Positions 9,377-24,343 of a DNA stretch of 42,008 nt are shown piece after piece. The position numbers and the translations under genes were made by a program. This DNA is from K189A clade bacterium (lineage in GTDB: Bacteria > Pseudomonadota > Gammaproteobacteria > Pseudomonadales > Azotimanducaceae), in assembly GCA_902565895.1 (NCBI GenBank), contig CACFGV010000016.1, positions 1-42,008 of the forward strand, given 5' to 3'. Every line of letters begins with the position of its first letter. Within the stretch, counting starts at the first letter, position 1. The notes beneath the pieces are model-generated. The model was not told the origin of the DNA. It saw only the letters and a list, made by a program, of their open reading frames with translations, and made no database searches.

Positions 9377-10363
9377 CTATCCCACGAGTTCGGTCTGATT
9401 GTCATTCAGCTCAGGTACTGGTGGTAACTTGAACGTTCTCACTTTGCTCGCTTCTACGACATTAGGGAATTCGTCGGCGTTGATAAAACGGTCACTCCAA
9501 TTTGTCGTGGACACCAAGTTTTCTACCGCAGCGCGGCGTTTAGCTATGACTTTCTCGTTGGACTTGCTCTTAGGCATCATGCAAACAAGGCTGATGGCTC
9601 GAAACAGCCGGTCATTAAATGACGGTGTTGCCAGTCCAGGACTGCTGCAGTGAATTGTGCGGGAATCCCACAGCAGCAAATCACCGGCTTCTAGGTGACA
9701 GATGATTGGCTGGGTGTCGGCAAGCAGCTCGTCATCGTTTGGAAAGCGAAAGTGGTCAATGGTCGGGTGAATACGCGCTAAGCGCTCTGGATATTTTTCT
9801 GGAATTGACGCAAAACGTTTATGGCTGCCGGGCACCATGACATTGCCACCACAAGCAGGTGAGGTTGGGATCAGGTTTACTAAACCTTGTACGCAGTGTT
9901 TGCCGGGGCGACCAATAGGATGTTGGTCTATGTGCATCCAGCTCGGGCCATCATTCGTGCGCCAGTGGGCATGGCGAGTCCATGGCCGCCAGAGCGCAAC
10001 GCCATCAAAACTGGTAAGTAGATCGTCGTCTTGCCATATCGAGGCAAAGGCCTGTTTCACTCGAGCTCGGTCGCGAATGTACCACTGGGCAGCACAATGC
10101 CCAATGCCGTGGCTGGGTAAAATCCCGCCATGAACCGCAGTTGGCCAACGGTCATCATCCCAGGTCTCAGGATCATTACGATCTATACCGGTGCCCAGCT
10201 CTTCTAGGTAATCCCACAGCAGGGCAAGGGCATGATCGGCTTCTTCTGTGGTTAACGCATTAGCGACCACCACGTAGCCATGTTCCTCTAAATAGTCGAG
10301 GCCGTCTTTATCCCCAGCTGCGAACCTCGGCACATGGCTGTAGGTGATGTTGATGTTGCTCAT
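9377..10363 (-). CDS. phytanoyl-CoA dioxygenase (PhyH) family Fe(II)/2-oxoglutarate oxygenase
   Basis: A protein of about 328 residues. The iron site is visible as MHIDQHP (His144, Asp146) and the distal His238 in RTIHCSSPG, preceded by the usual EAGDLLLWD strand. The sequence CGGNVMVPGSHKRF (about 171-184) is a family hallmark. I choose ATG 10363 because GGAGAGG sits 9 nt before it, whereas the upstream in-frame ATG at 10372 directly abuts that purine run. The enzyme oxidises a small organic substrate with O2 and 2-oxoglutarate; the substrate is unknown. The first 140 residues are rich in Trp, Asp and His. It is divergent from the ion-channel gene and not part of an operon. Confidence 0.85.
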   Translation of the reverse strand: MSNINITYSHVPRFAAGDKDGLDYLEEHGYVVVANALTTEEADHALALLWDYLEELGTGIDRNDPETWDDDRWPTAVHGGILPSHGIGHCAAQWYIRDRARVKQAFASIWQDDDLLTSFDGVALWRPWTRHAHWRTNDGPSWMHIDQHPIGRPGKHCVQGLVNLIPTSPACGGNVMVPGSHKRFASIPEKYPERLARIHPTIDHFRFPNDDELLADTQPIICHLEAGDLLLWDSRTIHCSSPGLATPSFNDRLFRAISLVCMMPKSKSNEKVIAKRRAAVENLVSTTNWSDRFINADEFPNVVEASKVRTFKLPPVPELNDNQTELVG

Positions 10364-10517
10364 AGTATGCATCCTCTCCCCGATAAGCCCGGTCGATTAA
10401 ACCACTTTTATAGAACGGGCGTGAGATGATATTTTCCGCCGAAATTTTGCACCTCTCAGCTGTAACCGGCTGAAGTGGGCTTGATCTAACATTCGCCGAT
10501 CAGAGGATTTTACAAGC

Positions 10518-11336
10518 ATGAGTGCCCCAACGACCCAAAAATTGCAGATATTTTTCGATCGTATTCGTTCCAACAAAGTGTTCGAAATGTTCGTGGTCGG
10601 GGTGATCTTGTTTTCGGCGGTCATCATAGGTATTCACAGCTACGAATTAGACAGCCGGGTAGTGCAAATCATGGCGGTCTTAGATCTGGCCATTACCTTG
10701 TTCTTTTTATTCGAGTTAAGTGTGCGTTTTCTCGGGGAACCAGAAAAACGCAGATTCTTTCGTCAAGGTTGGAATGTATTCGATACCTTGATCGTTACTG
10801 TGAGCCTGATACCCATTGATGAATCGGAGTTAGCTTTACTCGGTCGTCTAATAAGGATATTCCGTGTTCTGCGTATGGTTTCCATCATTCCGGAGTTGCG
10901 TATTCTGGTGAATTCGCTTCTACGCGCATTGCCGCAAATGGGCTACGTCTGCCTGCTTATTTTTATCATCTTCTACATTTATGCCGCGGTGGGCACCAGT
11001 TTGTTCGCTTCAGTAAATCCGGTTTTGTGGGGTGATATCGCTCTGGCCCTGCTGACCCTATTTAGGGTTATGACCTTTGAGGATTGGACTGATGTCATGT
11101 ACGAAACAATGGATGCGGGTTTCGGTTGGAGTTGGATCTTTTATTTGTCGTTTATTTTTCTAACAGCATTTGCCTTTCTTAATATGATAATAGGCATCGT
11201 AGTGAAAGTGTTAGAAGAAGAGCACCAGCGCGAACGTGATGCGCTTAATGAGTCCGAAGCAGACGGCGCTGAGCCGAACCTTCGTGACATTCAGCAACAA
11301 TTGGTGGAGCTTCGAGCGCTGGTAGAAAAACGTTAG
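10518..11336 (+). CDS. homotetrameric voltage-gated cation channel (NaChBac/BacNav-like) with calcium-type filter
   Basis: A 272-residue six-TM ion channel subunit. S1-S3 lie at about residues 22-40, 52-70 and 86-100. The S4 voltage sensor has four arginines at every third position (Arg110, 113, 116, 119), followed by the S4-S5 linker and S5 (about 142-162). The pore filter is TFEDWTD (186-192) and S6 is about 205-230. A C-terminal coiled coil (about 255-272) matches the tetramerising tail of BacNav channels. NaChBac and NavAb have TLESW-type filters, so the extra Asp189 and Asp192 here predict calcium-selective or mixed conduction. GAGGA precedes the ATG. The stop overlaps the FbiC stop by 4 nt. 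Confidence 0.88.
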   Translation: MSAPTTQKLQIFFDRIRSNKVFEMFVVGVILFSAVIIGIHSYELDSRVVQIMAVLDLAITLFFLFELSVRFLGEPEKRRFFRQGWNVFDTLIVTVSLIPIDESELALLGRLIRIFRVLRMVSIIPELRILVNSLLRALPQMGYVCLLIFIIFYIYAAVGTSLFASVNPVLWGDIALALLTLFRVMTFEDWTDVMYETMDAGFGWSWIFYLSFIFLTAFAFLNMIIGIVVKVLEEEHQRERDALNESEADGAEPNLRDIQQQLVELRALVEKR

Positions 11337-13828
11337 GTACCTGTAGTGCCGGATGATCTTGGTGCATTCGTCTCCACAGCCAGTGGTTCGTTGCGAATGA
11401 GTTCGTCACTCGAGCGCTTGCGCTCGTACTTGCGCGCGGGCGTATTGACGATTTGCACTAACTCAATTTGTCGCATGCCCGCGTTTATTCGTTCTTGGTT
11501 CACATCGGCGTAATTTGTGGCGCGTTGGCGTGGATTGCGATTAAGGGTGCGAATAATCTGATTCATTTGTTGCGGCGATGTTTCTTCACCGTGCAGGGTG
11601 CCTGCGGCGCGGCTGATTGATTCATTCATTAAGGTACCGCCAAGGTCATTGCAGCCAGCATTAAGACAGCCTTTTACGCCCTCGTGGCCCATCTTCACCC
11701 AACTGGTTTGAATGTTGTCAATTTGACCGTGCAAGGCCAACCGAGCCACTGCGTGCATCAGTATGGCCTCGCGGAACGTTGGTCCCTTGCGTGCTTTGCC
11801 CTTTAAGTACATGGGCGCTTCCATGTGCACAAAGGGCAGTGGGACGAATTCGGTAAAGCCACCGGTTTGTTCTTGCAGTGTTCGCACGCGCATCAGATGG
11901 CGCGCCCAATGCACCGGCTGTTCGACATGGCCGTACATGATAGTGGCGGTGGTTTTAAAGCCCAGGTCATGAGCGGCGCGCATGACGTCCAGCCATTGCT
12001 GGGTATTGATCTTGTCGGCGCAGATTACTGCACGCACCTCATCGTCGAGAATCTCTGCGGCGGTACCGGGCAGGGTATTCAGGCCAGCTTGTTGCAAGCG
12101 CCGCAAATAGTCACTGAGGCTGACATCCAGGGTTGCTGCCCCTTGCCACACTTCCAAGGGCGAGAACGCATGCACATGCATTTCGGGTACGGCTTGCTTT
12201 ACTACTTCTACAATATGGACGTAGGTATCGCCGGTATATTCTGGGTGGATACCCCCTTGCATGCAGACTTCGGTGGCCCCGCGTTGCCAAGCTTCGACAG
12301 TGCGGCGCTGAATTTCCTCATCAGATAAGTCGTAGGGTCGGCCACGCAAATTTTCTGACAGTTTGCCTTTGGAAAAAGCGCAGAACTGGCATTTGAAATA
12401 ACAGATATTGGTGTAGTTGATGTTGCGATTGACCACAAAACTGACGCTGTCGCCGTTAGTTTTACGGCGCAGCTGATCAGCGCTTTGCACCACGGCACTG
12501 AAGTCGTCGCCGCGGGCGCTGAACAGCCGCACGATTTGCTGCTCGCTGAGAGCCTCACCCTTCTTGGCCTGTTGTATGGCCTGGCGAATGTCTTGGGATA
12601 CCTGGCGAGGTGGATTGATAATGGCGTTCATGATCGAGCTAGGTGGCGCAATGTCTGGATCGCCAGGGCACCACTCATCAATGCGAGGAAAGCCTTCGCT
12701 GTCGATCATCTCCAATATGCGCTCGTGCAGGTCGGTGTGTGTCCACTGCTCTAGATCTACGGCGTATGCGGGGTAAACGGTTAGGCGCTCGGTCAGAAAC
12801 TTTCCGGCCGCCGCAGTCTCTCGAGTCAGCTCGTCCAAGTGGGGCCACGGCGCCTCGGGATTGACAAAGTCTGGTGTCACCGGCGACACGCCCCCCCAAT
12901 CGTTAATGCCGGCATGAACAATTTGCGGCAGCACTCCGGGACTCAGGTTTGGAGGGGCTTGAACACTCATCTGTGCGCCAAACAAAATCCGCGCGCAAGC
13001 GATGGTCCACAGCAGCTCGCCCAAGTCGGGCTCCGGCGCGTTGACCATTTTAGTTTCTGCCTTGGCGCGGAAGTTCTGCACGATGATTTCTTGAATGTGC
13101 CCGTACTGTTGATGCACGCGCCGAATTGCGAGCAGGCTCTCAATGCGCTCCAGGCGCGTTTCACCAATACCGATCAAAATACCGGTAGTGAACGGCACTT
13201 GGGCTTTGCCGGCCTCAGCAAGAGTCTGCAAACGCACGGCAGGAATTTTGTCCGGCGAGCCGTAGTGAGGCATGCCTTTTTCGCACAACCGCTCGGAGGC
13301 GGATTCGAGCATTATGCCCATCGACGGCGATACACTGCGCAATCGGGACAGTTCTTCGGCGTCGAGGTTGCCAGGATTCAAATGCGGCAGTAAGCCGGTT
13401 TCTTCAAAGACCGCCTTGGCTGCGGCGAATAAGTAGTCTGTGGTGCTGGCGTAGCCCATTTCAGCCAACGCATCACGTGCAGCCTTGTAACGTAGTTCCG
13501 GTTTTTCACCCAGGGTAAAGAGCGCTTCTTTGCAGCCCATACGTTGGCCATGTCGCGCCAGCTCTAAAACTTCGTCGATACTTAAATAAGGCGCCTGCAC
13601 TTTGCGCGGCACTTGGGCAAAGGTGCAGTAGTGGCACACATCGCGACACAAGTGGGTCAGCGGAATAAACACCTTGCGGGAGTAGGTCACGACGTTATTA
13701 AAACCCTGGTCGCGCATCTGTGATGCAGTATCAGCCAGGGCTCTTGTGTCGGTATAGTCGGCTAAGGCCAAGGCTTCTTCGTCCGTCGGCAAGATGCCGG
13801 CAACAGCGTTTTCGAGCATCGTTTTCAT
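11333..13828 (-). CDS. fbiC: FO synthase, CofG-CofH fusion (FbiC type)
   Basis: An 831-residue double radical-SAM enzyme. The N-terminal CofG half has its iron-sulfur motif CRDVCHYC (Cys61, 65, 68); the C-terminal CofH half has CYFKCQFC (Cys476, 480, 483). Order and total length match actinobacterial FbiC (about 850 residues). CofH joins a tyrosine-derived radical to 5-amino-6-ribitylaminouracil, and CofG closes the ring to give FO, the deazaflavin core of coenzyme F420. It is the last gene of the F420 operon: its ATG lies 3 nt after the cofC stop. A Pro/Ser-rich linker around residues 385-430 joins the halves. The C-terminal tail (about 800-831) is low in conservation. Confidence 0.96.
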   Translation of the reverse strand: MKTMLENAVAGILPTDEEALALADYTDTRALADTASQMRDQGFNNVVTYSRKVFIPLTHLCRDVCHYCTFAQVPRKVQAPYLSIDEVLELARHGQRMGCKEALFTLGEKPELRYKAARDALAEMGYASTTDYLFAAAKAVFEETGLLPHLNPGNLDAEELSRLRSVSPSMGIMLESASERLCEKGMPHYGSPDKIPAVRLQTLAEAGKAQVPFTTGILIGIGETRLERIESLLAIRRVHQQYGHIQEIIVQNFRAKAETKMVNAPEPDLGELLWTIACARILFGAQMSVQAPPNLSPGVLPQIVHAGINDWGGVSPVTPDFVNPEAPWPHLDELTRETAAAGKFLTERLTVYPAYAVDLEQWTHTDLHERILEMIDSEGFPRIDEWCPGDPDIAPPSSIMNAIINPPRQVSQDIRQAIQQAKKGEALSEQQIVRLFSARGDDFSAVVQSADQLRRKTNGDSVSFVVNRNINYTNICYFKCQFCAFSKGKLSENLRGRPYDLSDEEIQRRTVEAWQRGATEVCMQGGIHPEYTGDTYVHIVEVVKQAVPEMHVHAFSPLEVWQGAATLDVSLSDYLRRLQQAGLNTLPGTAAEILDDEVRAVICADKINTQQWLDVMRAAHDLGFKTTATIMYGHVEQPVHWARHLMRVRTLQEQTGGFTEFVPLPFVHMEAPMYLKGKARKGPTFREAILMHAVARLALHGQIDNIQTSWVKMGHEGVKGCLNAGCNDLGGTLMNESISRAAGTLHGEETSPQQMNQIIRTLNRNPRQRATNYADVNQERINAGMRQIELVQIVNTPARKYERKRSSDELIRNEPLAVETNAPRSSGTTGT

Positions 13829-13831
13829 GGC

Positions 13832-14497
13832 CTATCCTGAATGAGATTGGTGAGTAGCGTACAAGCGGCGTGCTATGCCCGACCGGTTTAAATAAGAAGC
13901 GGTCTGACTACCGGGTTGCTGTTGGTATACCGCGCTGAGGTCCTCCGGCAGATCAACGTCCAAGGCAAACTCGCTGGCGGGAACAATTCTTGGCGTAATA
14001 CCTGCGGTAAATGCTGCATCGGCGTGTGGCTTGAAGCTTTGGCCATTAAATACATAGGGAATACTAAGTGGTGGCGCGCAGATAAATCCATTAGTGCCTT
14101 TGTGCTCGGCGTCAGGCAGTAGGGTAATACCGCTGTTGTTGCGAATTAACTCATCCACCTGCTCGGGGTCTATACCCGGTACGTCTGCGGGGACTACGAA
14201 TATCCCCTGGGCATTGAAGTGGGCGACTAAATGTTCCGTAGCTTGGGTCAGGGCTTGGGCAAGATCGGCGTCAGGACTTTCGGCAAAGCGCTCGGTCGCG
14301 AATGCGGCGGCCAGAGAATCAGCTTCTGTCGTGCGCGAAACGATTAGAATACCCGTCAGTTCGGTGCACCGAGACAGGCAGGTCAAAACGTCTCGGGCCA
14401 TGGCGAGCATTAGGGCTCTACGCTCTTCTTCGCTTAGAACATCAGCTAAACGCTGTTTCGCGCGCTCGAACGTCTTGATGGGAACAATCGCCCACAT
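13832..14497 (-). CDS. cofC: 2-phospho-L-lactate guanylyltransferase family enzyme (CofC/FbiD)
   Basis: A 221-residue nucleotidyltransferase. The N-terminus MWAIVPIKTFERAKQRLA carries the family PxK...AKxRL nucleotide-binding motif (about residues 6-17). The acidic motif VPADVPGIDPEQ (about 111-122) binds metal, and GTNGFICAPP (about 143-152) is the substrate loop. CofC/FbiD joins GMP to a three-carbon phospho-acid (2-phospholactate, phosphoenolpyruvate or 3-phosphoglycerate depending on organism), giving the activated side-chain precursor used by CofD. Which substrate is used here cannot be read. GGGGTAGGAT immediately precedes the ATG. A 101-bp gap separates it from cofD, the largest within the operon. 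Confidence 0.93.
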   Translation of the reverse strand: MWAIVPIKTFERAKQRLADVLSEEERRALMLAMARDVLTCLSRCTELTGILIVSRTTEADSLAAAFATERFAESPDADLAQALTQATEHLVAHFNAQGIFVVPADVPGIDPEQVDELIRNNSGITLLPDAEHKGTNGFICAPPLSIPYVFNGQSFKPHADAAFTAGITPRIVPASEFALDVDLPEDLSAVYQQQPGSQTASYLNRSGIARRLYATHQSHSG

Positions 14498-14598
14498 ATC
14501 CTACCCCTGTAATGCTCGTTGTCGTTGCGACCTCGGCCCCTATTCGCACTCCTTCTTTGTGCGACTGAGTTGCCGAAACCGTTTTGCCAGCGCTGTGC

Positions 14599-15528
14599 TC
14601 AGTTGCTGCTCAGCGACGCCAAAAAGCTTACGCATGTCCTTGCTAGGTCGATGCGATCTTGCAACGTTACCATGACACTGGGGGTACTGATAGTCGGGAC
14701 ATTGAACTGCTCAACCAGTGCCGCATCGGTCTGGTCTACAACAAAACCATCAATGAGGCCTTGGTAGTGATCCGCAACAGCTAGCGCTGTCGCTGGCATG
14801 TTCAGCTCATGCATCATTTTTGCGGCTGGGCCTTTAATAGCAATACCGCCGACGATGGGTGAAACGGCAATTACCGGCAGCGACTTCAAGGCTTCGCCAA
14901 AACCGTCTAGATGCAGCATTGGGTCCACCGATACGAAAGGATTAGACGGGCAAATAATGACGCCGTCGCAGTCGGCTAACCACTCGCGAATGAGAGGATT
15001 CAATTCGGCGTTTGCTATGCCGTCGAAACTAAAGCCGCTGACCTTAGGGCCGCAACCTTCGCGTACAAAGTAGTGTTGGAACGCCAAGTCGCCTTGATCG
15101 CTGTGCACAATGGTGCGTACCGGGCTGTCGCTCATAGGCGCCACAGTGTGCTCAATTCCCATACTTTGGGTGATCGCTGCGGAGGCTTGACTGAGTGTTG
15201 CGCCACTTCTTAGCATCTGGGTGCGCGCCGTGTGCAGTGCCAGATCTTTGTCGCCTAAGCGGAACCAGGCTTCGCCGCCAAGGGCACCCAGAGTTTCTAT
15301 GAAATTCCAACTTTCGCCAGCTCGGCCCCAACCGGTTTCGGTATTGTTCTGTTGCGACAAAGCATAGGTCAGGCTATCGAGATCAGGACTGATGTGCAGA
15401 CCCAGATGTTCAAAGTCGTCACCGGTATTCACGGCAAACAGCAACTCATCGGGCGCCAGGATTTGACTCAGTCCTAAGGCTAATTTGGCGCCACCGACGC
15501 CGCCGGTTAGAGCAAGAATTCTGCCCAT
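14599..15528 (-). CDS. cofD: 2-phospho-L-lactate transferase family enzyme (CofD/FbiA)
   Basis: A 309-residue transferase. It starts with the nucleotide-binding loop LTGGVGGAKLALGL (residues 7-20), then NTGDDFEHLGLHISPDLDSL, a long CofD hallmark that contains FO- and metal-binding residues. CPSNPFVSVDPML and SPIVGGIAIKGPA further on are also typical. It transfers the phospho-three-carbon moiety from its GMP-activated form to FO, making F420-0 or its dehydro form. The ATG shares one base with the cofE stop (TGATG), so the two are translationally coupled. Length agrees with stand-alone CofD from archaea and actinobacteria. Confidence 0.95.
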   Translation of the reverse strand: MGRILALTGGVGGAKLALGLSQILAPDELLFAVNTGDDFEHLGLHISPDLDSLTYALSQQNNTETGWGRAGESWNFIETLGALGGEAWFRLGDKDLALHTARTQMLRSGATLSQASAAITQSMGIEHTVAPMSDSPVRTIVHSDQGDLAFQHYFVREGCGPKVSGFSFDGIANAELNPLIREWLADCDGVIICPSNPFVSVDPMLHLDGFGEALKSLPVIAVSPIVGGIAIKGPAAKMMHELNMPATALAVADHYQGLIDGFVVDQTDAALVEQFNVPTISTPSVMVTLQDRIDLARTCVSFLASLSSN

Positions 15529-16301
15529 CAGCGGAATAAGTCTTCTTCCAATGGCCGATTAATCAGCGCAGCGTTTTCGCCTTCGGCCATGGTTTGGTTT
15601 GAGTTAAGGCCGCGCACGATAACTACCGGGAGCTTCTCTGTGGTCTCACCCATAACCAAAGTGGCGGCGGACGCAATCGCGTCGGCGCGATTGATCAACG
15701 TAGCTTGCAGGGTACGGCCATAGATGTCTTGGCCGCCCACTTGATTATCTAGCACGCGGATACCAGCAGAACCGATCGCGCAGCCAATGGTGCCCATGCG
15801 CCAAGGCCGGTTATGACTGTCGGTAATCACCACGCCGAGTTCCGCACCGGTCTTTTGTTGCAAGTGGTCGCGCAGCCGCGCTGCTGTGGCGTCTGGGTCT
15901 TTTGGCAACAGCAGAGCTTGCTCTTGGTCCTGATGGTCGATATTTGATTGGTCTATGCCGGCATGGGCGCCGACAATGCCCAACTTGTGGCGAACGATTA
16001 ATACATTGGGTTTGTGGCGTAACACTTCAGTGGATTCGTCCAGTATGAGCTGCACCATACGCGGATCTTTGTGCGTGGCCTTGGCCAGGGCTTGCGCCTC
16101 TGGATTAGGTTCAACGGTTGCGAGGGCGCGCATCTGACCTTCGGCTTTGGAAACAATTTTCTGGGCCAGACACACCACATCGCCATCGCGCAATGACTGT
16201 TCTGCTTCTGCCATAGCGTTGAGAATGATGTCGCCTAGAGAATCACCGTGTTCGATCATGGGTATGTCCGGCACGCCGAACACGGAAAATTGCGCGGTCA
16301 T
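15528..16301 (-). CDS. cofE: coenzyme F420-0:L-glutamate ligase (CofE), single-domain
   Basis: A 257-residue ligase that adds the gamma-linked glutamate tail to F420-0 using GTP. Visible family signatures are AQKIVSKAEG (about residues 46-55), HKLGIVGAHAGIDQSN (about 104-119), the metal-binding VVITDSHNRPWRMGTIGCAIG (about 157-177) and DIYGRTLQ. The mycobacterial homologue FbiB carries a second, nitroreductase-like domain of about 200 residues that reduces dehydro-F420; this protein stops after the ligase domain. Its ATG lies 17 nt behind fno and it overlaps cofD by 1 nt. There is no clear Shine-Dalgarno sequence before the start, so translation may depend on fno. Confidence 0.95.
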   Translation of the reverse strand: MTAQFSVFGVPDIPMIEHGDSLGDIILNAMAEAEQSLRDGDVVCLAQKIVSKAEGQMRALATVEPNPEAQALAKATHKDPRMVQLILDESTEVLRHKPNVLIVRHKLGIVGAHAGIDQSNIDHQDQEQALLLPKDPDATAARLRDHLQQKTGAELGVVITDSHNRPWRMGTIGCAIGSAGIRVLDNQVGGQDIYGRTLQATLINRADAIASAATLVMGETTEKLPVVIVRGLNSNQTMAEGENAALINRPLEEDLFR

Positions 16302-16318
16302 TACGAAGCTATTTTGAT

Positions 16319-16981
16319 CTAGTGCTCTTGACCGATGATCTTGATGCCAGAATGCGACACGATGCCGCTGCGGTTGATCTGGATCAGGATCGAAGTCAGT
16401 GCCTCTGCCGCTGCGGCATTGGCAATCGGACCGGCGTGCCAGCCGTTCATGCCAGCCTCACTGATCAGATCAATGACGCGTTGGCGCGCTTCTTTATTGT
16501 TGCCCGCAACCAATACATCGCACTCGATGACTACATCCTGTTGCAGGAGGTGCGCTGCAATGTTTTGAAATGCGCTGACCACCATGACGTCATCGCCAAG
16601 GTGATCTTGGGCCCGCTTGCCCGCGCTGCCCTCTGCGGGCATTTGCACGGTGCCGACCTTTGGCGGCACTAAAGGTACCGTCACATCGATCAGAATTTTG
16701 CCCTTAAGAGACTCTTTAACCCCATCGAGCGTGGAGATTTGATGATCAGCAGGCACGGTGAGCACCACGATGTCGCCGGCAGCGGCGGCAGCGGCATTTT
16801 CCATCGCTTGGGCTGGAGTATCAGGGCTGATTTCAGCCAATGCAGCGACGGCTGCGTCTGCTTTTTCTTGGGTCCGTGAGCCAATAACGATGTTATAGCC
16901 GGCTTTCGACCAACGAATGGCTAAGCCGGTGCCGAGGTCCCCGGTGCCGCCAAGGATCGCGATGGTTTCTTTTGCTGACAT
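16319..16981 (-). CDS. fno: F420-dependent NADP reductase (NADPH:F420 oxidoreductase)
   Basis: A 220-residue Rossmann enzyme that moves hydride between NADP(H) and F420, supplying reduced F420 in organisms without an F420-reducing glucose-6-phosphate dehydrogenase. The N-terminal AILGGTGDLGTGLAIRW (residues 8-24) is the family dinucleotide loop, and GSRTQEKA (about 34-41) is the NADP phosphate-binding stretch. The internal LIDVTVPLVPP and the ending with GPIANAAAAEALTS are also typical. I choose ATG 16981, which has GGAAGA 7 nt upstream; a longer frame to 17047 lacks support. It is the first gene of the F420 operon, directly behind a good promoter. Confidence 0.92.
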   Translation of the reverse strand: MSAKETIAILGGTGDLGTGLAIRWSKAGYNIVIGSRTQEKADAAVAALAEISPDTPAQAMENAAAAAAGDIVVLTVPADHQISTLDGVKESLKGKILIDVTVPLVPPKVGTVQMPAEGSAGKRAQDHLGDDVMVVSAFQNIAAHLLQQDVVIECDVLVAGNNKEARQRVIDLISEAGMNGWHAGPIANAAAAEALTSILIQINRSGIVSHSGIKIIGQEH

Positions 16982-17015
16982 GAATGTTCTTCCGTCGAGT
17001 GGGTTAAAGCGTGAG

Positions 17016-17044
17016 ATTATGCAGCTTCTAACAAACACTGTGAA
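17016..17044 (-). promoter_or_regulatory. sigma70-like promoter of the F420 operon
   Basis: On the minus strand TTCACA (17044-17039), a 17-bp spacer and CATAAT (17021-17016) match the consensus at 5 of 6 positions each. A transcript would start near 17009, leaving a leader of about 28 nt before fno. It is the best promoter match I found in the window. Confidence 0.6.
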
Positions 17045-17064
17045 CACGTCGTGAACTTGTGTTC
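17040..17064. promoter_or_regulatory. possible operator overlapping the -35 box of the F420 operon
   Basis: GTGAAC is repeated directly at 17040-17045 and 17051-17056, 11 bp apart, which is one helical turn. In addition GAACAC (17042-17047) and GTGTTC (17059-17064) form an inverted repeat with an 11-bp spacer. Both overlap the -35 box of the fno promoter, a position typical for repressor binding. No regulator gene is seen next to it. Confidence 0.35.
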
Positions 17065-17099
17065 GCGCAACGGCCCAGGCAGCCTTGGGCGTCGCGAAC
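17061..17099. promoter_or_regulatory. nested inverted repeat upstream of the LLM gene
   Basis: GTTCGCG (17061-17067) pairs with CGCGAAC (17093-17099), and inside it GCCCA (17073-17077) pairs with TGGGC (17086-17090). The sequence TATACT (17100-17105) that follows directly could be a -10 box for the LLM gene, although no matching -35 box is visible. The element may be an operator or a transcription-control hairpin. Confidence 0.3.
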
Positions 17100-17139
17100 T
17101 ATACTTGCGCAAAGCAACAACAATTTAGGGGAGGCGGGA

Positions 17140-18045
17140 ATGAGAATAGGTGCAATGATTGGCGCCGATGGCACTAAAAGCTCGATAAATGCCGTAGTCC
17201 AATTGGGCAAAGATATTGAAGCTGCCGGACTGGATCATGTCTGGTTAGCGAATATCTTTTCCTACGATGCGATTACTGCTTTGGCGCTGATTGGTCGCGA
17301 AACCGAGCGCGTGCGTCTGGGCACCGCAGTGACCCCAACGTATCCGCGGCACCCAGCTGCGATGGCTCAGCAGGCGCTGACCACAGCAGCGGCGACGGAC
17401 AGTCGCTTTACGCTGGGGATAGGGCTCTCTCATAAGGTGGTGATAGAAGACATGTTTGGTCTTAGCTATGCCGCACCGGCAAAGCATATGCGCGAGTACT
17501 TGACTGTGTTGATGCCACTTATTCACGGCGAAACGGTCAGCCACAACGGCGAGCACTATCGGGTCAACGGTGTGACTATGGATATACCCGGGGTGGAATC
17601 CTTGCCAGTAGTCGTAGCTGCCCTTGGGCCGCAAATGATCAAACTCACAGCTGAACTGGCAGATGGCACTAACACTTGGATGGTTGGCCCCAAAACTATG
17701 GAAGAGCACATCATCCCCAGTTTCAATGCGGCGGGTTGTACCGATCCAGACATTGTTGCCGGTATGCCCATTGTGCTGACCACAAAAATCGACGAGGCCA
17801 AAGAAGTTATCGCAAAACAGTTGACGGTATACGGCCAGCTGCCAAGTTATCGCGCCATGCTGGACCGTGAAGGCGCCGCAGGACCAGCGGATCTAGCCAT
17901 TGTTGGCGACGAGAACCAGCTGCGGGGACAGATCAAGCGGTTTGAAGACATGGGTGTGACGGATTTCAACGCAGCGATTATGGACGTGGAAGATGGCGCT
18001 TATGCGCGCACCTTAGAATTTCTCGGCAGCCTGAAAGGCAGTTAG
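17140..18045 (+). CDS. LLM class oxidoreductase, probably F420-dependent
   Basis: A 301-residue luciferase-like TIM-barrel enzyme. It opens with MRIGAMIGADG, then DHVWLANIFSYDAITALALIG, TERVRLGTAVTPTYPRHPA and FTLGIGLSHK, the usual barrel strands of an F420-dependent LLM subfamily. The start ATG 17140 has GGGGAGGCGGG upstream; the open frame reaches further up but without a start site. Enzymes of this group bind F420 or FMN; since the gene is divergent from a full F420 operon and shares its control region, F420 is the likely cofactor. Substrates of related enzymes include alcohols, aldehydes and unsaturated compounds. None can be named here. Confidence 0.88.
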   Translation: MRIGAMIGADGTKSSINAVVQLGKDIEAAGLDHVWLANIFSYDAITALALIGRETERVRLGTAVTPTYPRHPAAMAQQALTTAAATDSRFTLGIGLSHKVVIEDMFGLSYAAPAKHMREYLTVLMPLIHGETVSHNGEHYRVNGVTMDIPGVESLPVVVAALGPQMIKLTAELADGTNTWMVGPKTMEEHIIPSFNAAGCTDPDIVAGMPIVLTTKIDEAKEVIAKQLTVYGQLPSYRAMLDREGAAGPADLAIVGDENQLRGQIKRFEDMGVTDFNAAIMDVEDGAYARTLEFLGSLKGS

Positions 18046-18309: not shown

Positions 18310-19173
18310 TTATGGGTTAGAGAATTGTTGGCTCTCGGTCAAACTTGCAAGTCCTGGTGACTCTAGGCCGCGAGCGCGTCGACCTTGGTAATCGGGATCA
18401 ATCAAGCGCTTTGGATGCACGCCATCAACATAACCCATAAAACCTGGATCAATGGTGGCATAGCCCAGCATCTCTTGAATCCTCGGGCTGTACTGACCGG
18501 CAACGCTGGGTGGCACAGCTAACGCCATATTCTCGATCTGGCGCAAACCAGGCATACAGTATTGCGGCGTAATGGCCAGGCGGTCGCTGGCGCTGCGATT
18601 GGCACCGCCGCGGTGCAGTAGCGTGCCGAGAAATACGATGACAGAACCCGCTGGCATGACCACTTGGGTAATCTCGTCTTCTTTGGCTTGCCGTTCTTCT
18701 GGCCAGCGATGACTGCCAGCAACGACCTCGGTGGCGCCGTTGTCGGCAGTGAAATCGTCCAAGGCCCAGATTGTGCTCACGCCGAAATGCGCGCGAGGGC
18801 GAGGAAACGGTAAATTGCCCGCGTTGTCATCTATGTGCATAGGTTGCGGTGTTTCACCGGGGTGCACGTCAATGGCCAAAGCAGCAGATAGCAAAAAGCC
18901 CGGCGGCAACAGTGCGTCCAGAATGGGCAACACAGCAGGGTGCTCAATGATCTTTGCAATGCTTGGAGCTTTACTCAGCAGTGCATAGACCCGTTCGCTG
19001 TACAAACCCTCAAAGTCGTTGCGACCCGGATGTTGGCCTTGTAGAAAAGGCGAGAGTTCATGTTTGATCGCGGTTATGAGTTCGGTGTCGATGACCTTAG
19101 GCAATATGGTGAATCCATCCACCTCAATGCGCTGGAGGTGCTGAGCTAAGTCTCTAGCAGGTGCATTGGCCAT
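18310..19173 (-). CDS. phytanoyl-CoA dioxygenase (PhyH) family Fe(II)/2-oxoglutarate oxygenase
   Basis: A 287-residue enzyme. The iron ligands are visible in PMHIDDN (His113, Asp115) and LLHRGGANRS (His187); the sequence DNGATEVVAGSHRWP (about 144-158) is the family signature, and Arg198 in SDRLA is the likely 2-oxoglutarate anchor. The N-terminus VDGFTILPKVID is the usual PhyH opening. The ending contains a poorly conserved tail after residue 265. Substrate is not readable. The gene heads a likely operon with slyX and is divergent (65 bp) from an SDR dehydrogenase, which may act on the same compound after hydroxylation. Confidence 0.88.
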   Translation of the reverse strand: MANAPARDLAQHLQRIEVDGFTILPKVIDTELITAIKHELSPFLQGQHPGRNDFEGLYSERVYALLSKAPSIAKIIEHPAVLPILDALLPPGFLLSAALAIDVHPGETPQPMHIDDNAGNLPFPRPRAHFGVSTIWALDDFTADNGATEVVAGSHRWPEERQAKEDEITQVVMPAGSVIVFLGTLLHRGGANRSASDRLAITPQYCMPGLRQIENMALAVPPSVAGQYSPRIQEMLGYATIDPGFMGYVDGVHPKRLIDPDYQGRRARGLESPGLASLTESQQFSNP

Positions 19174-20008: not shown

Positions 20009-20938
20009 TCAGTGCTTATTTAGCGCGGAAATTTCCGGCAGTAACAACTCCACCATAAGGCGGGTCTGTTCGAGCATATCTTCTGTGCCTGCCGCGATGG
20101 GCCGAAGTACGAATTTGTGTACGCCGGCATCATGGAAGTCTTTGACCAAAGCCATCATGTCTTCGACGTCGCCAATGGCGCTGTAAGCGGCTGGATCTTT
20201 GCCTAAGCGTTTTTCGAATTGCTCGTTGTATCGAGCAACCAGCGGCTCGTCGTGCTTGCCGAAGCGAAAGCCAAAGCCCGCACCGAAGTGATCGTCATCA
20301 ATTTTTCGACCAAGTTCGGCGGCACGCTGTTTAATGGCGGTGATCACCGGCGCGACCTCTGCGGCAGATTCTATGCCGGCCTGCCAACCCGTCCCCCATC
20401 GTGCCGTGCGTTCGATGGCTGCCGCGGCTGAGCCGCCCACCCACAGTGGCAGCGGCGATTGCACGGGTTTGGGAGCAATGGTGGCATCGTCCAGGGTGTA
20501 ATAGTCGCCACTAAAGCTAACTCGGTCTTCACTCCAAAGGCGGGCCATGATTTCTAAACCTTCGTCGGTGCGCTTACCACGGCCCTTAGTGGGCGTGCCA
20601 GTTGCGACATAGTCTCGTGATTGGGCGCTGCCTACACCAAAGGCTGGGAGCAGTCGGCCATTGGACAGGTAGTCGATGGTGGCGCAAGCCTTGGCCATGA
20701 CCACGGGGTCGCGCAGCCCCATGCTGGCTACGTTCATACCAAATTTAAGCCGTTTACTGCCCCCGGCGAGCGCCGCCATTACGCTCATGGTCTCTAGATT
20801 CGGTGAGCGCTCAATGATGCGGTCGCTTTGCCAAATAGAATCCACACCACCGTTGTCGCAAAGGTCTACCCAGCGCCAAAAGCCGTCGGCGTCGTCGAAG
20901 GTAAAATTTGCCATGCCAATGCCTGCGCCGATGGTCAT
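20009..20938 (-). CDS. LLM class flavin- or F420-dependent oxidoreductase
   Basis: A 309-residue luciferase-like TIM-barrel enzyme of another subgroup than the one at 17140. Visible strands are VDSIWQSDRI (about residues 31-40), SKRLKFGMNVASMGLRDP (about 61-78), the helix and loop ATIDYLSNGRLLPAFGVGS (about 85-103) and PLPLWVGGSA (about 164-173). The phosphate-binding GGS is typical for F420- or FMN-binding members. It lies 41 nt behind oppC in the same direction, so it could be the last gene of the transporter operon and may oxidise or reduce the imported compound. Cofactor choice cannot be decided by reading alone, but the F420 genes nearby make F420 likely. Confidence 0.85.
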   Translation of the reverse strand: MTIGAGIGMANFTFDDADGFWRWVDLCDNGGVDSIWQSDRIIERSPNLETMSVMAALAGGSKRLKFGMNVASMGLRDPVVMAKACATIDYLSNGRLLPAFGVGSAQSRDYVATGTPTKGRGKRTDEGLEIMARLWSEDRVSFSGDYYTLDDATIAPKPVQSPLPLWVGGSAAAAIERTARWGTGWQAGIESAAEVAPVITAIKQRAAELGRKIDDDHFGAGFGFRFGKHDEPLVARYNEQFEKRLGKDPAAYSAIGDVEDMMALVKDFHDAGVHKFVLRPIAAGTEDMLEQTRLMVELLLPEISALNKH

Positions 20939-20979: not shown

Positions 20980-21798
20980 TTATCGGCGATTCAGACGATC
21001 GCGCAATCGGTCGCCTAGGGTGTTAATGCTCCACAATGTCAGCATCAGCAATCCCGCTGGAAACAGCAGCTGCCATGGCGCAGATTCCATGCTGTAGATC
21101 CCATCTGCTATGAGTACGCCCCAACTGGTGGCGGGTTCTTGTAGACCTAAGCCGAGGAAGCTGATGAAACTCTCCGCCAGAATGACGCCAGGCAGGGTTA
21201 GGGTGGCGTAAATCAAAATAACGCCAGCGACATTCGGCAGGATATGTCGCCAGATAATTTGTCGCGTATTGGCGCCCAAGCTGCGTGCCGCCTCGATAAA
21301 TAATGATTGGCGCAGGGCCAGGGTTTGGCCGCGCACTATGCGCGCAATATCGAGCCAGAAAAATGCCCCCAGCGCAGTAAACAATAAATATGGATTGCGA
21401 CCGAAAAGTACCACTAACAACACAACAATAAGTATCAGTGGTAAACCGTACAAGCCGTCAACAATACGCATCATGATCAAGTCGGTACGTCCGCCGAAGA
21501 ACCCAGCTACAGCGCCCCAGGGCACGCCGATCGTCACGCTGACAGTGGTTGCGACGAGCGCGATGAACAGCGATGTGCGTGCGCCTTCTAGGGTGCGGAC
21601 AAATAAGTCTCGGCCTATCAGATCGGTACCGAACCAGTGCTGTGCTGAGGGTCCTGTCTGTATGGATTGCCAGTCTATGTCCTCGGGTTGCCAAGAGCTC
21701 AAGCTGGGGCCGACAAGGCACAACATGAGGATTAAGGCCAAGCTGACCAGGGCAAAGCCGGTGCTTCCGAATAACCTGGTGCTAGTGAGCATGTTCAC
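20980..21798 (-). CDS. ABC transporter permease, OppC/DppC type
   Basis: A 272-residue inner-membrane permease with an N-terminal TM helix (about residues 11-31) and five further helices in the transport domain. HWFGTDLIGRDLFVRTLEGAR (about 54-74) is the hallmark of OppC/DppC proteins, and the EAA loop AARSLGANTRQIIWRHILPN (about 170-189) contacts the ATPase. It forms the channel together with the OppB-like partner, whose gene overlaps it by 4 nt. The ending WSINTLGDRLRDRLNRR corresponds to the usual conserved C-terminus. No ATPase gene follows. Confidence 0.92.
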   Translation of the reverse strand: MNMLTSTRLFGSTGFALVSLALILMLCLVGPSLSSWQPEDIDWQSIQTGPSAQHWFGTDLIGRDLFVRTLEGARTSLFIALVATTVSVTIGVPWGAVAGFFGGRTDLIMMRIVDGLYGLPLILIVVLLVVLFGRNPYLLFTALGAFFWLDIARIVRGQTLALRQSLFIEAARSLGANTRQIIWRHILPNVAGVILIYATLTLPGVILAESFISFLGLGLQEPATSWGVLIADGIYSMESAPWQLLFPAGLLMLTLWSINTLGDRLRDRLNRR

Positions 21799-22727
21799 TG
21801 GGCTATGACCAAGCGTGGATCTAGCCAGGCATAGGCCAAGTCGACGAGCAAGTTAAGGCTGGCGATAAACGCTGAGTACACAACGACTACGCCCATAACC
21901 AAGGTGTAGTCATTGTTTAGGGCGCCCTCGACAAAGTAGCGCCCAATACCGGGCATAGCGAAGATCTGTTCCACCACCACTGAGCCGGTGAGCAAGGCTG
22001 CGCTGGCGGGGCCGAGGTAGGACAGTACCGGCAGTAACGACAGCGGTAATACATGACGCATGACAAGCTGGGTCCGGCCCAAGCCCTTGGCTCGGGCAGT
22101 GCGCAGGTGATCGGCCAGCAGAGTATCCACCACGCTGCCGCGACACAGTCGCGCAATGGCACCGCTGAAAGGTAAGGCCAAGGCGATCGCGGGTAATAGA
22201 AAATGCAGCCACCCATCGGCGCCGCCGGCGGGTAGCCAGGACAACATGACGGCAAATAGCAGCACCAACAGCGGTGCGGTGATCAACGTTGGGGTGGCTA
22301 AATTAAGGTTATTGAGGGCCATCAATAAACGATCCGTCCATGAATCGGGGTGCAGGCCCGCAAAGGTGCCAATCGTGACGCCACTGATCAGAGCGAAGGT
22401 CATGGCCAGCAAACCGAGTGTTGCACTGGTGGGTAATCCGGCGGCAATGAGTTCGTTTACGGTGAAGTCTTTGCTGCGAAAGGACGGGCCGAGGTCGCCA
22501 GTTAACAAGCTGCTTAAGTAGCGCAGGTATTGTTGCAGAATGGGCTCGTCTAGGTGATACGCAGCGCGTAGATTTTTTTCCACCGCCTCAGGCAACTGCC
22601 GTTCGCCGTCGAAAGGGCCGCCCGGAGTAAGGCGCACCAGCACAAACACCACGGACACTAAGACCAACACAGTAACGCCGGCAAAGATGATCCGCTGCAA
22701 TAAATAGCGAGCTGGCGGTAACCTCAT
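21795..22727 (-). CDS. ABC transporter permease, OppB/DppB type
   Basis: A 310-residue inner-membrane permease. The N-terminal YLLQRIIFAGVTVLVLVSVV helix and following TPGGPFDGERQLP loop are typical of OppB. The EAA loop is present as LRTARAKGLGRTQLVMRHVL (about residues 204-223). Six hydrophobic segments are visible. The end contains the DPR motif of the family (WLDPRL). The ATG overlaps the end of the binding-protein gene and the stop overlaps the oppC start, each by 4 nt, so all three are translated as a coupled set. Confidence 0.92.
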   Translation of the reverse strand: MRLPPARYLLQRIIFAGVTVLVLVSVVFVLVRLTPGGPFDGERQLPEAVEKNLRAAYHLDEPILQQYLRYLSSLLTGDLGPSFRSKDFTVNELIAAGLPTSATLGLLAMTFALISGVTIGTFAGLHPDSWTDRLLMALNNLNLATPTLITAPLLVLLFAVMLSWLPAGGADGWLHFLLPAIALALPFSGAIARLCRGSVVDTLLADHLRTARAKGLGRTQLVMRHVLPLSLLPVLSYLGPASAALLTGSVVVEQIFAMPGIGRYFVEGALNNDYTLVMGVVVVYSAFIASLNLLVDLAYAWLDPRLVIAQ

Positions 22728-24343
22728 GGCCTTGGCTGATCTGTAGCGAAGTGCAGATAGCGCAGCGGATGTATGTCCCGCGGGTTGTCATACCAGCCAC
22801 CAAGGCGTGGATTAACCAGTCGTCGACTGGCCAGACTGTACAGTGGTACCACCGGCGCTTCGCGTAATGCGACGGCCTCGGCCTGTTGCAGAAGTTTGTT
22901 ACGGCTTTGAACATCTGCGTGGGTGCGCGCTTGTTGAATGAGTTGATCGAATTCGGCGCTGTGATAAGCGCCGTAGTTGACGTCGCCAACATCGGAGGCT
23001 AGCAAGCCCAGGTAATGCTCGGCGTTGCTCTCACCGATCCAGCCCGCCCAAGCCACATCAAACTCACCTTGGCGCAAATCTGCAAAGTGGGCGTTCATAG
23101 TGCCGTGTTGCAGTTGAGTCTGAACCCCAAGTTGCCGCCACATGCCGGCAACGGCCAGATTAACGCGCTTTTCTTCGTTGCCGCTGACATGGCGCAAGGT
23201 GATGCGCAGCGGGCGCTTGGCATCGTAGCCTGCCTCTGCGAGCAACCGCTTCGCGCGTTCGATCAGGTCACCAGGCATGTGGCTGTGATCCATTGGCGGC
23301 GCTTGGTAAGCGGTAATCATTTCTGGTGTGAAGGTTTTAGCCGCTCTAGCACCAGAGCGCAGCACCTTATCGGCAAGCAGGTTCTGATCCACGACCGAAG
23401 CCAGAGCAGTGCGCACACGCACATCATCAAAAGGCGGGCGTCGAGTGTTAAAAACCAAGTACATCATCGACAACAACGGCGACTGGCGCAGACTTGCTGC
23501 ATTATTTTTTTCGACGCGCGCAAGCTCGTTTGCGGGAAAACTCGCGATGGCGTGTAGTTCACCATTGCGATAGCGGTTGTAGGCGGCCTGCTCATTGGCA
23601 AATGGCAGATAACGAGCGCGTTGTATCGCCACAGAATCGACAAAGTGTGGGTTACTGTGCATTTCGATGAAAGCCTCGGGTTGCCAATGGGCCAAGGTAT
23701 ACGCGCCATTCGATACCCAATGCTCTGGTTTAGTCCATGCCGCCCCCACTTTGTTGATGATGTGTTGCGGCACCGGGAATGCTGTTGGGTACAGCAGTCG
23801 CTCTGGTAGAAACGGATACGGTGCTGCGAGTTGCATAACCAGCGTATGCGGCCCTTGGCTGTATACCCCTAGATCGGTCTCGGGAAGTTTGCCCCGATTC
23901 ACCGCCTCTGCGTTGTCCAGCATGTACATAAAATAGGCGAGGCTGGCGGCGGTCTGTGGATTCATCAGTCGCCGTAACGAGTACACAAAGTCATCTGCTG
24001 TGAGTGGAGTACCATCGGACCAACGTAAGTCTTTGCGCAAGTTAAAGGTCCAAGTCAGGCCGTCTTCGCTTACTGTCCAACTGGTTGCGGCACCTGGAAC
24101 AATTTGACCCTGGGCGCTGAACGTTGTCAGCCCCATAAATAGATCGTTCAGCAGTGTTTCTTCTAAGCGCAGGTTGTAACGGTGAGGATCTAGGGTGCCG
24201 GGTTCACCGCTGTTGCCGAGGTAGAGCGTTTCCTCGGTGCTTGAGGCTTGGAGGCTAAAAGCCCATGCGATTAGCAGGGTGACGCTGATGTAGCGACAAC
24301 AACGCTTCAGTGAAAACTGGCGGTAAACGAGGCTGAGAGGCAT
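22724..24343 (-). CDS. ABC transporter extracellular solute-binding protein, family 5 (OppA type)
   Basis: A 539-residue periplasmic binding protein. A basic N-terminus and hydrophobic helix (about residues 17-34) give a Sec signal peptide, cleaved near residue 34; no lipobox cysteine is visible. The mature part starts with YLGNSGEPGTLDPHRYN, followed by TWTFNLRKDLRWSDGTPLTADDFVYSLRR, both hallmarks of family 5. The second lobe contains NTRRPPFDDVRVRTALASVVD. It captures oligopeptides or other medium-size solutes; the ligand is unknown. A TTAACA/TATGGT promoter lies upstream. It is the first gene of the transporter operon. Confidence 0.93.
   Translation of the reverse strand: MPLSLVYRQFSLKRCCRYISVTLLIAWAFSLQASSTEETLYLGNSGEPGTLDPHRYNLRLEETLLNDLFMGLTTFSAQGQIVPGAATSWTVSEDGLTWTFNLRKDLRWSDGTPLTADDFVYSLRRLMNPQTAASLAYFMYMLDNAEAVNRGKLPETDLGVYSQGPHTLVMQLAAPYPFLPERLLYPTAFPVPQHIINKVGAAWTKPEHWVSNGAYTLAHWQPEAFIEMHSNPHFVDSVAIQRARYLPFANEQAAYNRYRNGELHAIASFPANELARVEKNNAASLRQSPLLSMMYLVFNTRRPPFDDVRVRTALASVVDQNLLADKVLRSGARAAKTFTPEMITAYQAPPMDHSHMPGDLIERAKRLLAEAGYDAKRPLRITLRHVSGNEEKRVNLAVAGMWRQLGVQTQLQHGTMNAHFADLRQGEFDVAWAGWIGESNAEHYLGLLASDVGDVNYGAYHSAEFDQLIQQARTHADVQSRNKLLQQAEAVALREAPVVPLYSLASRRLVNPRLGGWYDNPRDIHPLRYLHFATDQPRP

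What the first reader, a model, noticed from the sequence alone, without database searches (positions are those of the whole stretch)
11333..16981. Complete coenzyme F420 operon in an apparent gammaproteobacterium
Five consecutive minus-strand genes encode fno, cofE, cofD, cofC and a CofG-CofH fusion, i.e. all core steps from FO to glutamylated F420 plus a reductase that links F420 to NADPH. Spacings are small (17 nt, 1-nt overlap, 101 nt, 3 nt), so this is a working operon by appearance, and all catalytic motifs are intact. F420 is best known from archaea and actinobacteria; reports in proteobacteria are few. The neighbouring genes look gammaproteobacterial.
Basis: partly seen in the sequence, partly recalled or inferred. 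Interest (0 to 1): 0.75.

Follow-up and report, generated by a model that had tools for sequence, protein, structure and literature searches.

The report
F420 operon, gammaproteobacterial, odd CofC
A probably marine gammaproteobacterium carries a complete-looking gene set for the unusual redox cofactor F420, shared by nearly all of its family, but one enzyme has an unusual residue at the spot that chooses the cofactor's linker, so the exact chemical form it makes is open and testable.

Summary
Confirmed. fno, cofE, cofD, cofC and a CofG-CofH fusion lie at 11333-16981 (minus strand), each over its curated NCBIfam cut-off, with the stated spacings. The host is gammaproteobacterial (nearest named relative TMED92). 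The trait is family-wide: CofD over cut-off in 180 of 200 sampled family genomes, 84 of 293 of the order, 14 of 369 of the class, 5 of 398 of the phylum (window included each time). Gene order is kept in 35 of 39 family loci.

The new part is inside the operon. CofE is stand-alone, and no match at the level of the known dehydro-F420 reductases was found in 200 family or 293 order genomes (a control rang). At the residue that sets CofC's C3-acid choice (Gly in FbiD, Tyr in Methanosarcina, Ser in the 3-PG enzyme) the window has Asn, and 53 of 82 other family genomes read have Asp or Asn; all 35 genomes read from other families of the order and all 10 from elsewhere in the class have Gly. With that site removed the Asp/Asn enzymes still form one clade. 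The linker (2-phospholactate, 3-phosphoglycerate, other) is undecided; Asp and Asn were not among the published mutants I saw.

The parts
16319..16981 (-). fno / npdG, NADPH-dependent F420 reductase, 220 aa
   Evidence: TIGR01915 188.8 bits, cut-off 149.8; ATG at 16981; lengths in relatives
15528..16301 (-). cofE, F420-0:L-glutamate ligase, stand-alone, 257 aa, no fused nitroreductase domain
   Evidence: TIGR01916 264.4 bits; only PF01996 in Pfam
14599..15528 (-). cofD, phosphoacid transferase to FO, 309 aa
   Evidence: TIGR01819 273 bits, over cut-off
13832..14497 (-). cofC, guanylyltransferase, 221 aa; Asn151-Gly152 (codons AAT GGC) at the C3-acid specificity site
   Evidence: TIGR03552 130.4 bits; site mapped onto 7p97 Ser162; codons; AlphaFold2 model mean pLDDT 92.7
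11333..13828 (-). fbiC, CofG-CofH fusion (FO synthase), 831 aa
   Evidence: NF006687 1175.8 bits; two CxxxCxxC motifs
17140..18045 (+). divergent luciferase-like (LLM) oxidoreductase, TIGR03564 family; possible F420 user
   Evidence: TIGR03564 310.5 bits, cut-off 234.25; a related divergent LLM is upstream of fno in many family loci; start read
16982..17139 (.). 158-nt divergent intergenic region, likely promoter region (inference)
   Evidence: a 10-of-12 sigma-70-like match on the minus strand at 17044-17016, but that scan found 5 sites against 6.0 expected in shuffles

Best explanation
A working F420 biosynthesis and recycling operon, a resident trait of one Pseudomonadales family. FbiC makes FO; CofC activates a phosphorylated C3 acid with GTP; CofD moves it onto FO; CofE adds glutamates; Fno exchanges electrons between NADPH and F420 and so feeds luciferase-like and perhaps Ddn-type enzymes of the genome. 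The most likely linker step uses an already saturated C3 acid (2-phospho-L-lactate, or less likely 3-phosphoglycerate), so no dehydro-F420 reductase is needed. Shown by sequence: the genes, their order and conservation, the host, the lack of matches to the known reductases, and the clade-specific CofC site. Inferred: production of F420, the linker, and use by the LLM enzymes.
For: All five proteins exceed curated cut-offs. CofD over cut-off in 180 of 200 family genomes, with a match at 1e-3 in 37 of 37 genera; five-gene order in 35 of 39 family loci. 23 PF00296 matches in the window's 69%-complete genome and 17 to 76 in 7 relatives. PF04075 matches in 8 of 8 genomes and 0 of 14 controls, though the 3 in the window's own genome are weak. 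For a saturated linker: stand-alone CofE; best TIGR03553 match 69.5 bits in 200 family genomes and none at 1e-20 in 293 order genomes, against 163.4 bits for the Thermomicrobium roseum nitroreductase as control; no nitroreductase at 1e-4 in 119 operon loci or the window (control E 6e-36). PMC7253369 (passage) says that the FbiB domain is absent from CofE in most other producers, including M. mazei and P. rhizoxinica, whose routes need no reduction.
Against: No chemistry is known for any carrier. PF00296 also holds FMN enzymes and rings in 10 of 14 control genomes. I know of no accepted gene for a bacterial 2-phospholactate source, so the source of a saturated acid is unnamed. In-vitro preference of CofC for 2-PL does not prove the in-vivo substrate (PMC8764529, section 5). 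An unrelated reductase could exist; weak TIGR03553 matches (generic nitroreductases) are in 198 of 200 family genomes, and those searches scored at most 10 or 15 candidates per genome.
Confidence: 0.7

Rival explanations
1. The operon uses PEP as in actinobacteria, and dehydro-F420-0 is reduced by an enzyme unrelated to FbiB or the Thermomicrobium nitroreductase; the Asp/Asn in CofC does not change the substrate.
For: 29 of 82 other family genomes read have Gly at the site, and Gly-type operons lack a nearby nitroreductase just as Asp-type ones do, so lack of the reductase does not track the CofC type. Generic nitroreductases (up to 69.5 bits) and many flavin or deazaflavin enzymes are present.
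Against: The site is not drifting: in 82 other family genomes it is Asp (51), Asn (2) or Gly (29), and none of 35 genera read mixes Asp/Asn with Gly (many genera have one genome). No match at the level of the known reductases in 293 order genomes.
Confidence: 0.25
2. The Asp/Asn CofC activates 3-phosphoglycerate and the clade makes 3PG-F420, known from Mycetohabitans.
For: The window CofC is closest among solved structures to the 3-PG enzyme 7p97: 112.9 bits against 37.7 and 37.4, and best Foldseek hit at 38% identity. The loop has the same frame, F-x-G-x-S-F-x-x-H, with a non-Gly first residue. Asp-type sequences score 94.5 bits median to 7p97, Gly-type 73.1. No reduction step is needed.
Against: The published diagnostic residue is Ser or Thr (PMC8764529, section 10). 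The window has Leu at the M91 and C95 sites, where M91L reduced and C95L strongly reduced 3-PG use (PMC8764529, passage of section 7), and Lys at the H145 site. 65 of 67 Gly-type sequences also score best to 7p97, so that score is partly plain kinship. 7p97 does not branch with the clade. M. mazei CofC also has the x-G-x-S-F frame.
Confidence: 0.2
3. Contamination or recent transfer: the contig or operon is not native to a gammaproteobacterium.
For: Similar operons sit on plasmids of alpha- and betaproteobacteria, some typed conjugative, so transfer can occur; the genome is only 69% complete.
Against: 191 of 200 family genomes have a CofD match; LLM, ion-channel and PhyH genes are kept beside the operon in L058-L060; no composition break at the operon.
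Confidence: 0.03

Closest known systems
Mycobacterial F420 pathway (FbiA, FbiB, FbiC, FbiD)
   Same: FbiC-type CofGH fusion; homologous CofC and CofD steps
   Different: FbiB carries a C-terminal reductase for dehydro-F420-0; here CofE stands alone and no such domain was found. FbiD has Gly at the specificity site; here Asn, with Asp in near relatives
3PG-F420 pathway of Mycetohabitans (CofC structure 7p97)
   Same: Per the papers, CofE without the reductase domain and no reduction step; closest solved CofC; loop frame F-x-G-x-S-F
   Different: Ser162, M91 and C95 of the 3-PG enzyme are Asn, Leu and Leu here; the two CofCs do not form a clade
Archaeal 2-phospholactate route (M. mazei CofC 2i5e)
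   Same: Per the papers, CofE without the reductase domain; Leu at the M91 and C95 sites; x-G-x-S-F loop with a non-Gly residue
   Different: Tyr at the specificity site; 26.6% identity over the stretch compared; separate CofG and CofH in archaea is recalled, not checked here
Plasmid-borne F420 operons of alpha- and betaproteobacteria (e.g. Sinorhizobium fredii, Paraburkholderia sp. PGU19, Aromatoleum aromaticum)
   Same: Same gene set; S. fredii and Paraburkholderia PGU19 have the same order, Aromatoleum has fbiC moved to the front
   Different: Gly at the CofC site in the 10 plasmid loci read of 32 records; some, such as Leisingera, have separate cofG and cofH

Membership tests
F420 biosynthesis operon | CofG+CofH, CofC, CofD, CofE each over curated cut-off and clustered | tested here: met
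F420 biosynthesis operon | makes F420 in the cell | not testable with these tools
   needs LC-MS or fluorescence
Dehydro-F420 (PEP) route | FbiB C-terminal domain or Thermomicrobium-type nitroreductase | tested here: not met
   CofE has PF01996 only; 0 of 200 family genomes over the TIGR03553 cut-off; 0 of 293 order genomes at 1e-20; T. roseum plasmid rings in the same search. The window's genome is only 69% complete
3PG-F420 route | Ser or Thr at the Mycetohabitans S162 site of CofC | tested here: not met
   Asn in the window; Asp or Asn in 53 of 82 other family genomes read
3PG-F420 route | CofC/CofD turns over 3-PG | not testable with these tools
   enzyme assay needed
2-phospholactate route | CofC/CofD turns over 2-PL and the cell makes 2-PL | not testable with these tools
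   enzyme assay needed; no gene marker for the 2-PL source was searched for
Gammaproteobacterial host | nearest relatives lie in Gammaproteobacteria | tested here: met
   best FbiC relatives are named Gammaproteobacteria/Pseudomonadales; TMED92 lineage. No ribosomal or core-marker tree was built

The most novel reading that the evidence does not exclude
A single ancestral switch from Gly-x to Asp-Gly in the substrate loop of CofC, kept in 20 of the 35 genera read of one Pseudomonadales family, changed the C3 acid built into F420, so this clade makes a non-classical F420: 3PG-F420 by an independent route, or a linker not yet described.
Probability: 0.27. Interest if true: 0.72.

Novelty: new variant of a known kind. 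Interest (0 to 1): 0.42.

Why it matters
The operon itself is a known kind. Its interest is that F420 is a near-universal trait of a whole gammaproteobacterial family, and that this family offers a natural test of an open question: how bacteria without a recognisable dehydro-F420 reductase make a saturated F420, and who besides Mycetohabitans makes 3PG-F420. PMC8764529 (section 15) says that other 3PG-F420 producers must exist because the compound was detected in biogas-producing sludge.

Tried and rejected
A first idea was that Gly-type relatives would carry a dehydro-F420 reductase and Asp-type ones would not. That failed: neither type has a nitroreductase near the operon in the 119 loci read and none rings at 1e-20 in 293 order genomes, so lack of the reductase does not by itself explain the Asp switch. 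Kinship to the 3-PG enzyme was considered as proof of 3-PG use and rejected: 65 of 67 Gly-type sequences also score best to 7p97, and with the two site columns removed 7p97 does not join the Asp/Asn clade. A helix-N-cap explanation of the residue was dropped, because the model's helix begins at residue 155, so residue 154 and not 151 sits before it. The promoter and terminator scans gave no more sites than shuffles. CofD was not mined for matching specificity changes, and the CofD tree does not separate Asp-type from all Gly-type operons, so CofD history is not a clean match to the CofC switch. The alignment paired two unrelated proteins by mistake and was not used.
Full report
Observation. 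CofE is a plain 257-residue ligase with no second domain.

Host. The window is contig C16 of a 2.02-Mb, 69%-complete genome in 87 contigs. In the FbiC tree of 112 rows the window sits with L060 and then L059 (SH-aLRT 98 and 100). No independent marker tree was built. A marine habitat is inferred from record names only.

Spread. CofD (TIGR01819) over cut-off, the window's genome counted each time: 180 of 200 sampled family genomes (191 with a match at 1e-3, 37 of 37 genera); 84 of 293 in the order, of which 10 of 12 are family members; 14 of 369 in the class; 5 of 398 in the phylum, one more of them from the same order. The draws overlap, and the phylum draw shows mostly complete genomes. Weak matches below cut-off in the class and phylum draws look like the paralogue YvcK (recalled; E. 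coli rings among the controls). Of 39 family loci that I picked, 35 show fno-cofE-cofD-cofC-fbiC in that order on one strand (in three of these one gene is short or cut), 3 lack fbiC beside it and 1 lacks both cofC and fbiC. Of 80 named loci 52 show all five genes in order, 11 show a part, and in 17 no cofD was read beside fbiC: some are cut by a contig end, others, such as L071 and L085, have long flanks. Ten plasmid loci, of 32 plasmid records with a match, were read as well.

Use of the cofactor. The window's genome has 23 PF00296 matches; seven relatives have 17 to 76. PF04075, the Ddn family, matches in 8 of 8 genomes and 0 of 14 controls; the three matches in the window's own genome are weak, 23.6 to 27.1 bits against a cut-off of 22. 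PF00296 also holds FMN enzymes and rings in 10 of 14 controls, so its count is support, not proof.

The linker. Three routes are described: 2-PL in archaea, PEP with later reduction in mycobacteria and Thermomicrobia, 3-PG in Mycetohabitans (PMC8498797, passages and section 9; PMC8764529, sections 5, 8-12 and 15 and passages; PMC7253369, passages). The reducing enzyme was sought in four ways. Pfam shows no second domain in the window's CofE. TIGR03553 has no match over cut-off in 200 family genomes, best 69.5 bits; weak matches below it are in 198 of 200, and in 11 of 14 controls, which marks them as generic nitroreductases. In 293 order genomes it has no match at 1e-20; that search rang in no control genome, so I ran it on four plasmid records, where the T. 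roseum plasmid rings at 163.4 bits and the other three do not. A nitroreductase profile from 20 family sequences found nothing at 1e-4 in 119 operon loci and the window, but found the T. roseum enzyme at 6e-36. Gly-type and Asp-type operons alike lack it.

The CofC site. In the Mycetohabitans enzyme Ser162 is critical for 3-PG use; the FbiD equivalent is Gly163 (PMC8764529); the M. mazei residue is Tyr. The window has Asn151-Gly152. Of 82 other family genomes whose CofC could be read, 51 have Asp, 2 Asn, 29 Gly, and none of 35 genera mixes Asp/Asn with Gly; all 35 genomes read from 21 other families of the order and all 10 read from 8 other families of the class have Gly. All 10 plasmid CofCs read have Gly. 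Of three phylum-level loci one reads Gly, one Ala and one could not be read. Loci without a readable CofC were dropped: 22 of 162 (8 of these were weak CofD-like matches) and 28 of 245. Between 41 Asp/Asn-type and 67 Gly-type sequences, the two most different columns of the protein are exactly this residue and the next. With both columns removed, the 47 Asp/Asn rows of a 155-row tree are one clade (SH-aLRT 99, quick method, no bootstrap; rows over 80% identical to a kept row or under 165 residues were left out), and none of the other 108 rows has Asp or Asn. This fits one switch that was kept. In the FbiC tree one Gly-type locus (L046) lies among Asp-type rows, and in the CofD tree several do, so CofC and the other genes do not share one history throughout.

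What the site may mean. The AlphaFold2 model (39 sequences, mean pLDDT 92.7) has as best structural hits the 3-PG enzyme 7p97, then FbiD, then M. mazei CofC. For 3-PG: the loop frame and the closer match. Against 3-PG: Leu at the M91 and C95 sites, where Leu lowers 3-PG use, and the rule that Ser or Thr marks 3-PG enzymes. For 2-PL: the Leu/Leu pocket and the non-Gly residue, as in M. mazei. Asp and Asn are not among the mutants named in the parts I read. I rate a saturated linker, 2-PL first, as likeliest, then PEP with an unknown reductase, then 3-PG.

Literature. Listings only: F420 with gammaproteobacteria and other terms (30 of 58 shown), with Halieaceae or deazaflavin (20 of 184 shown, none of these holding Halieaceae), with sponge symbionts (20 of 900 shown), with OM182 (none), dehydro-F420 with Gram-negative and other terms (12 of 13 shown), with Pseudomonadales (all 10 shown), with Zhongshania (none). 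In what was shown I saw no paper whose title or abstract start treats F420 synthesis in this family. The review PMC8498797 does not use the word gammaproteobacteria in its held main text, but the entries of its Table 4 are not held. The library is open-licence only and Ney et al. 2017 was not held, so this is not proof of absence from print.

Verdict. A genuine F420 operon, ordinary in gene content, family-wide, in a gammaproteobacterium; new in one respect, a clade-specific change at the residue that sets the cofactor's linker.

Noticed in passing
window 20009-20938 (-): A second luciferase-like enzyme (PF00296; below the NCBIfam cut-offs of the F420 LLM families) beside a peptide-type ABC transporter (20980-24343).
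   Followed up: partly
window 9377-10372 (-) and 18310-19173 (-): Two PhyH-family dioxygenase genes flank the operon region; the first is kept beside the operon in L058-L060, together with the ion channel 10518-11336.
   Followed up: partly
L023, L028, L033, L038, L042, L044, L047, L050, L054, L056: These Gly-type family loci carry one to three LLM genes downstream of fbiC on the same strand, while many Asp-type ones (and Gly-type L046 and L051) have an LLM like the window's divergent to fno.
   Followed up: partly
L131, L134, L137: Three contigs labelled Holophagales, Acidobacteriota and Acidobacteria carry the operon in the same order with Gly-type CofC, and their CofD falls among the family's Gly-type rows (SH-aLRT 97): a possible transfer between phyla.
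   Followed up: no
   Followed up: no
L202 (G004): CofC with F-G-G-G-S-F at the specificity loop, a form between the Gly-x and Asp-Gly types.
   Followed up: no
L040 (G103, same genus): fno-cofE-cofD present, but cofC and fbiC were not found in the 11 kb fetched.
   Followed up: no
L278: A CofD homologue in a more distant genome of the phylum with an in-frame TAG; it was left as it is.
   Followed up: no
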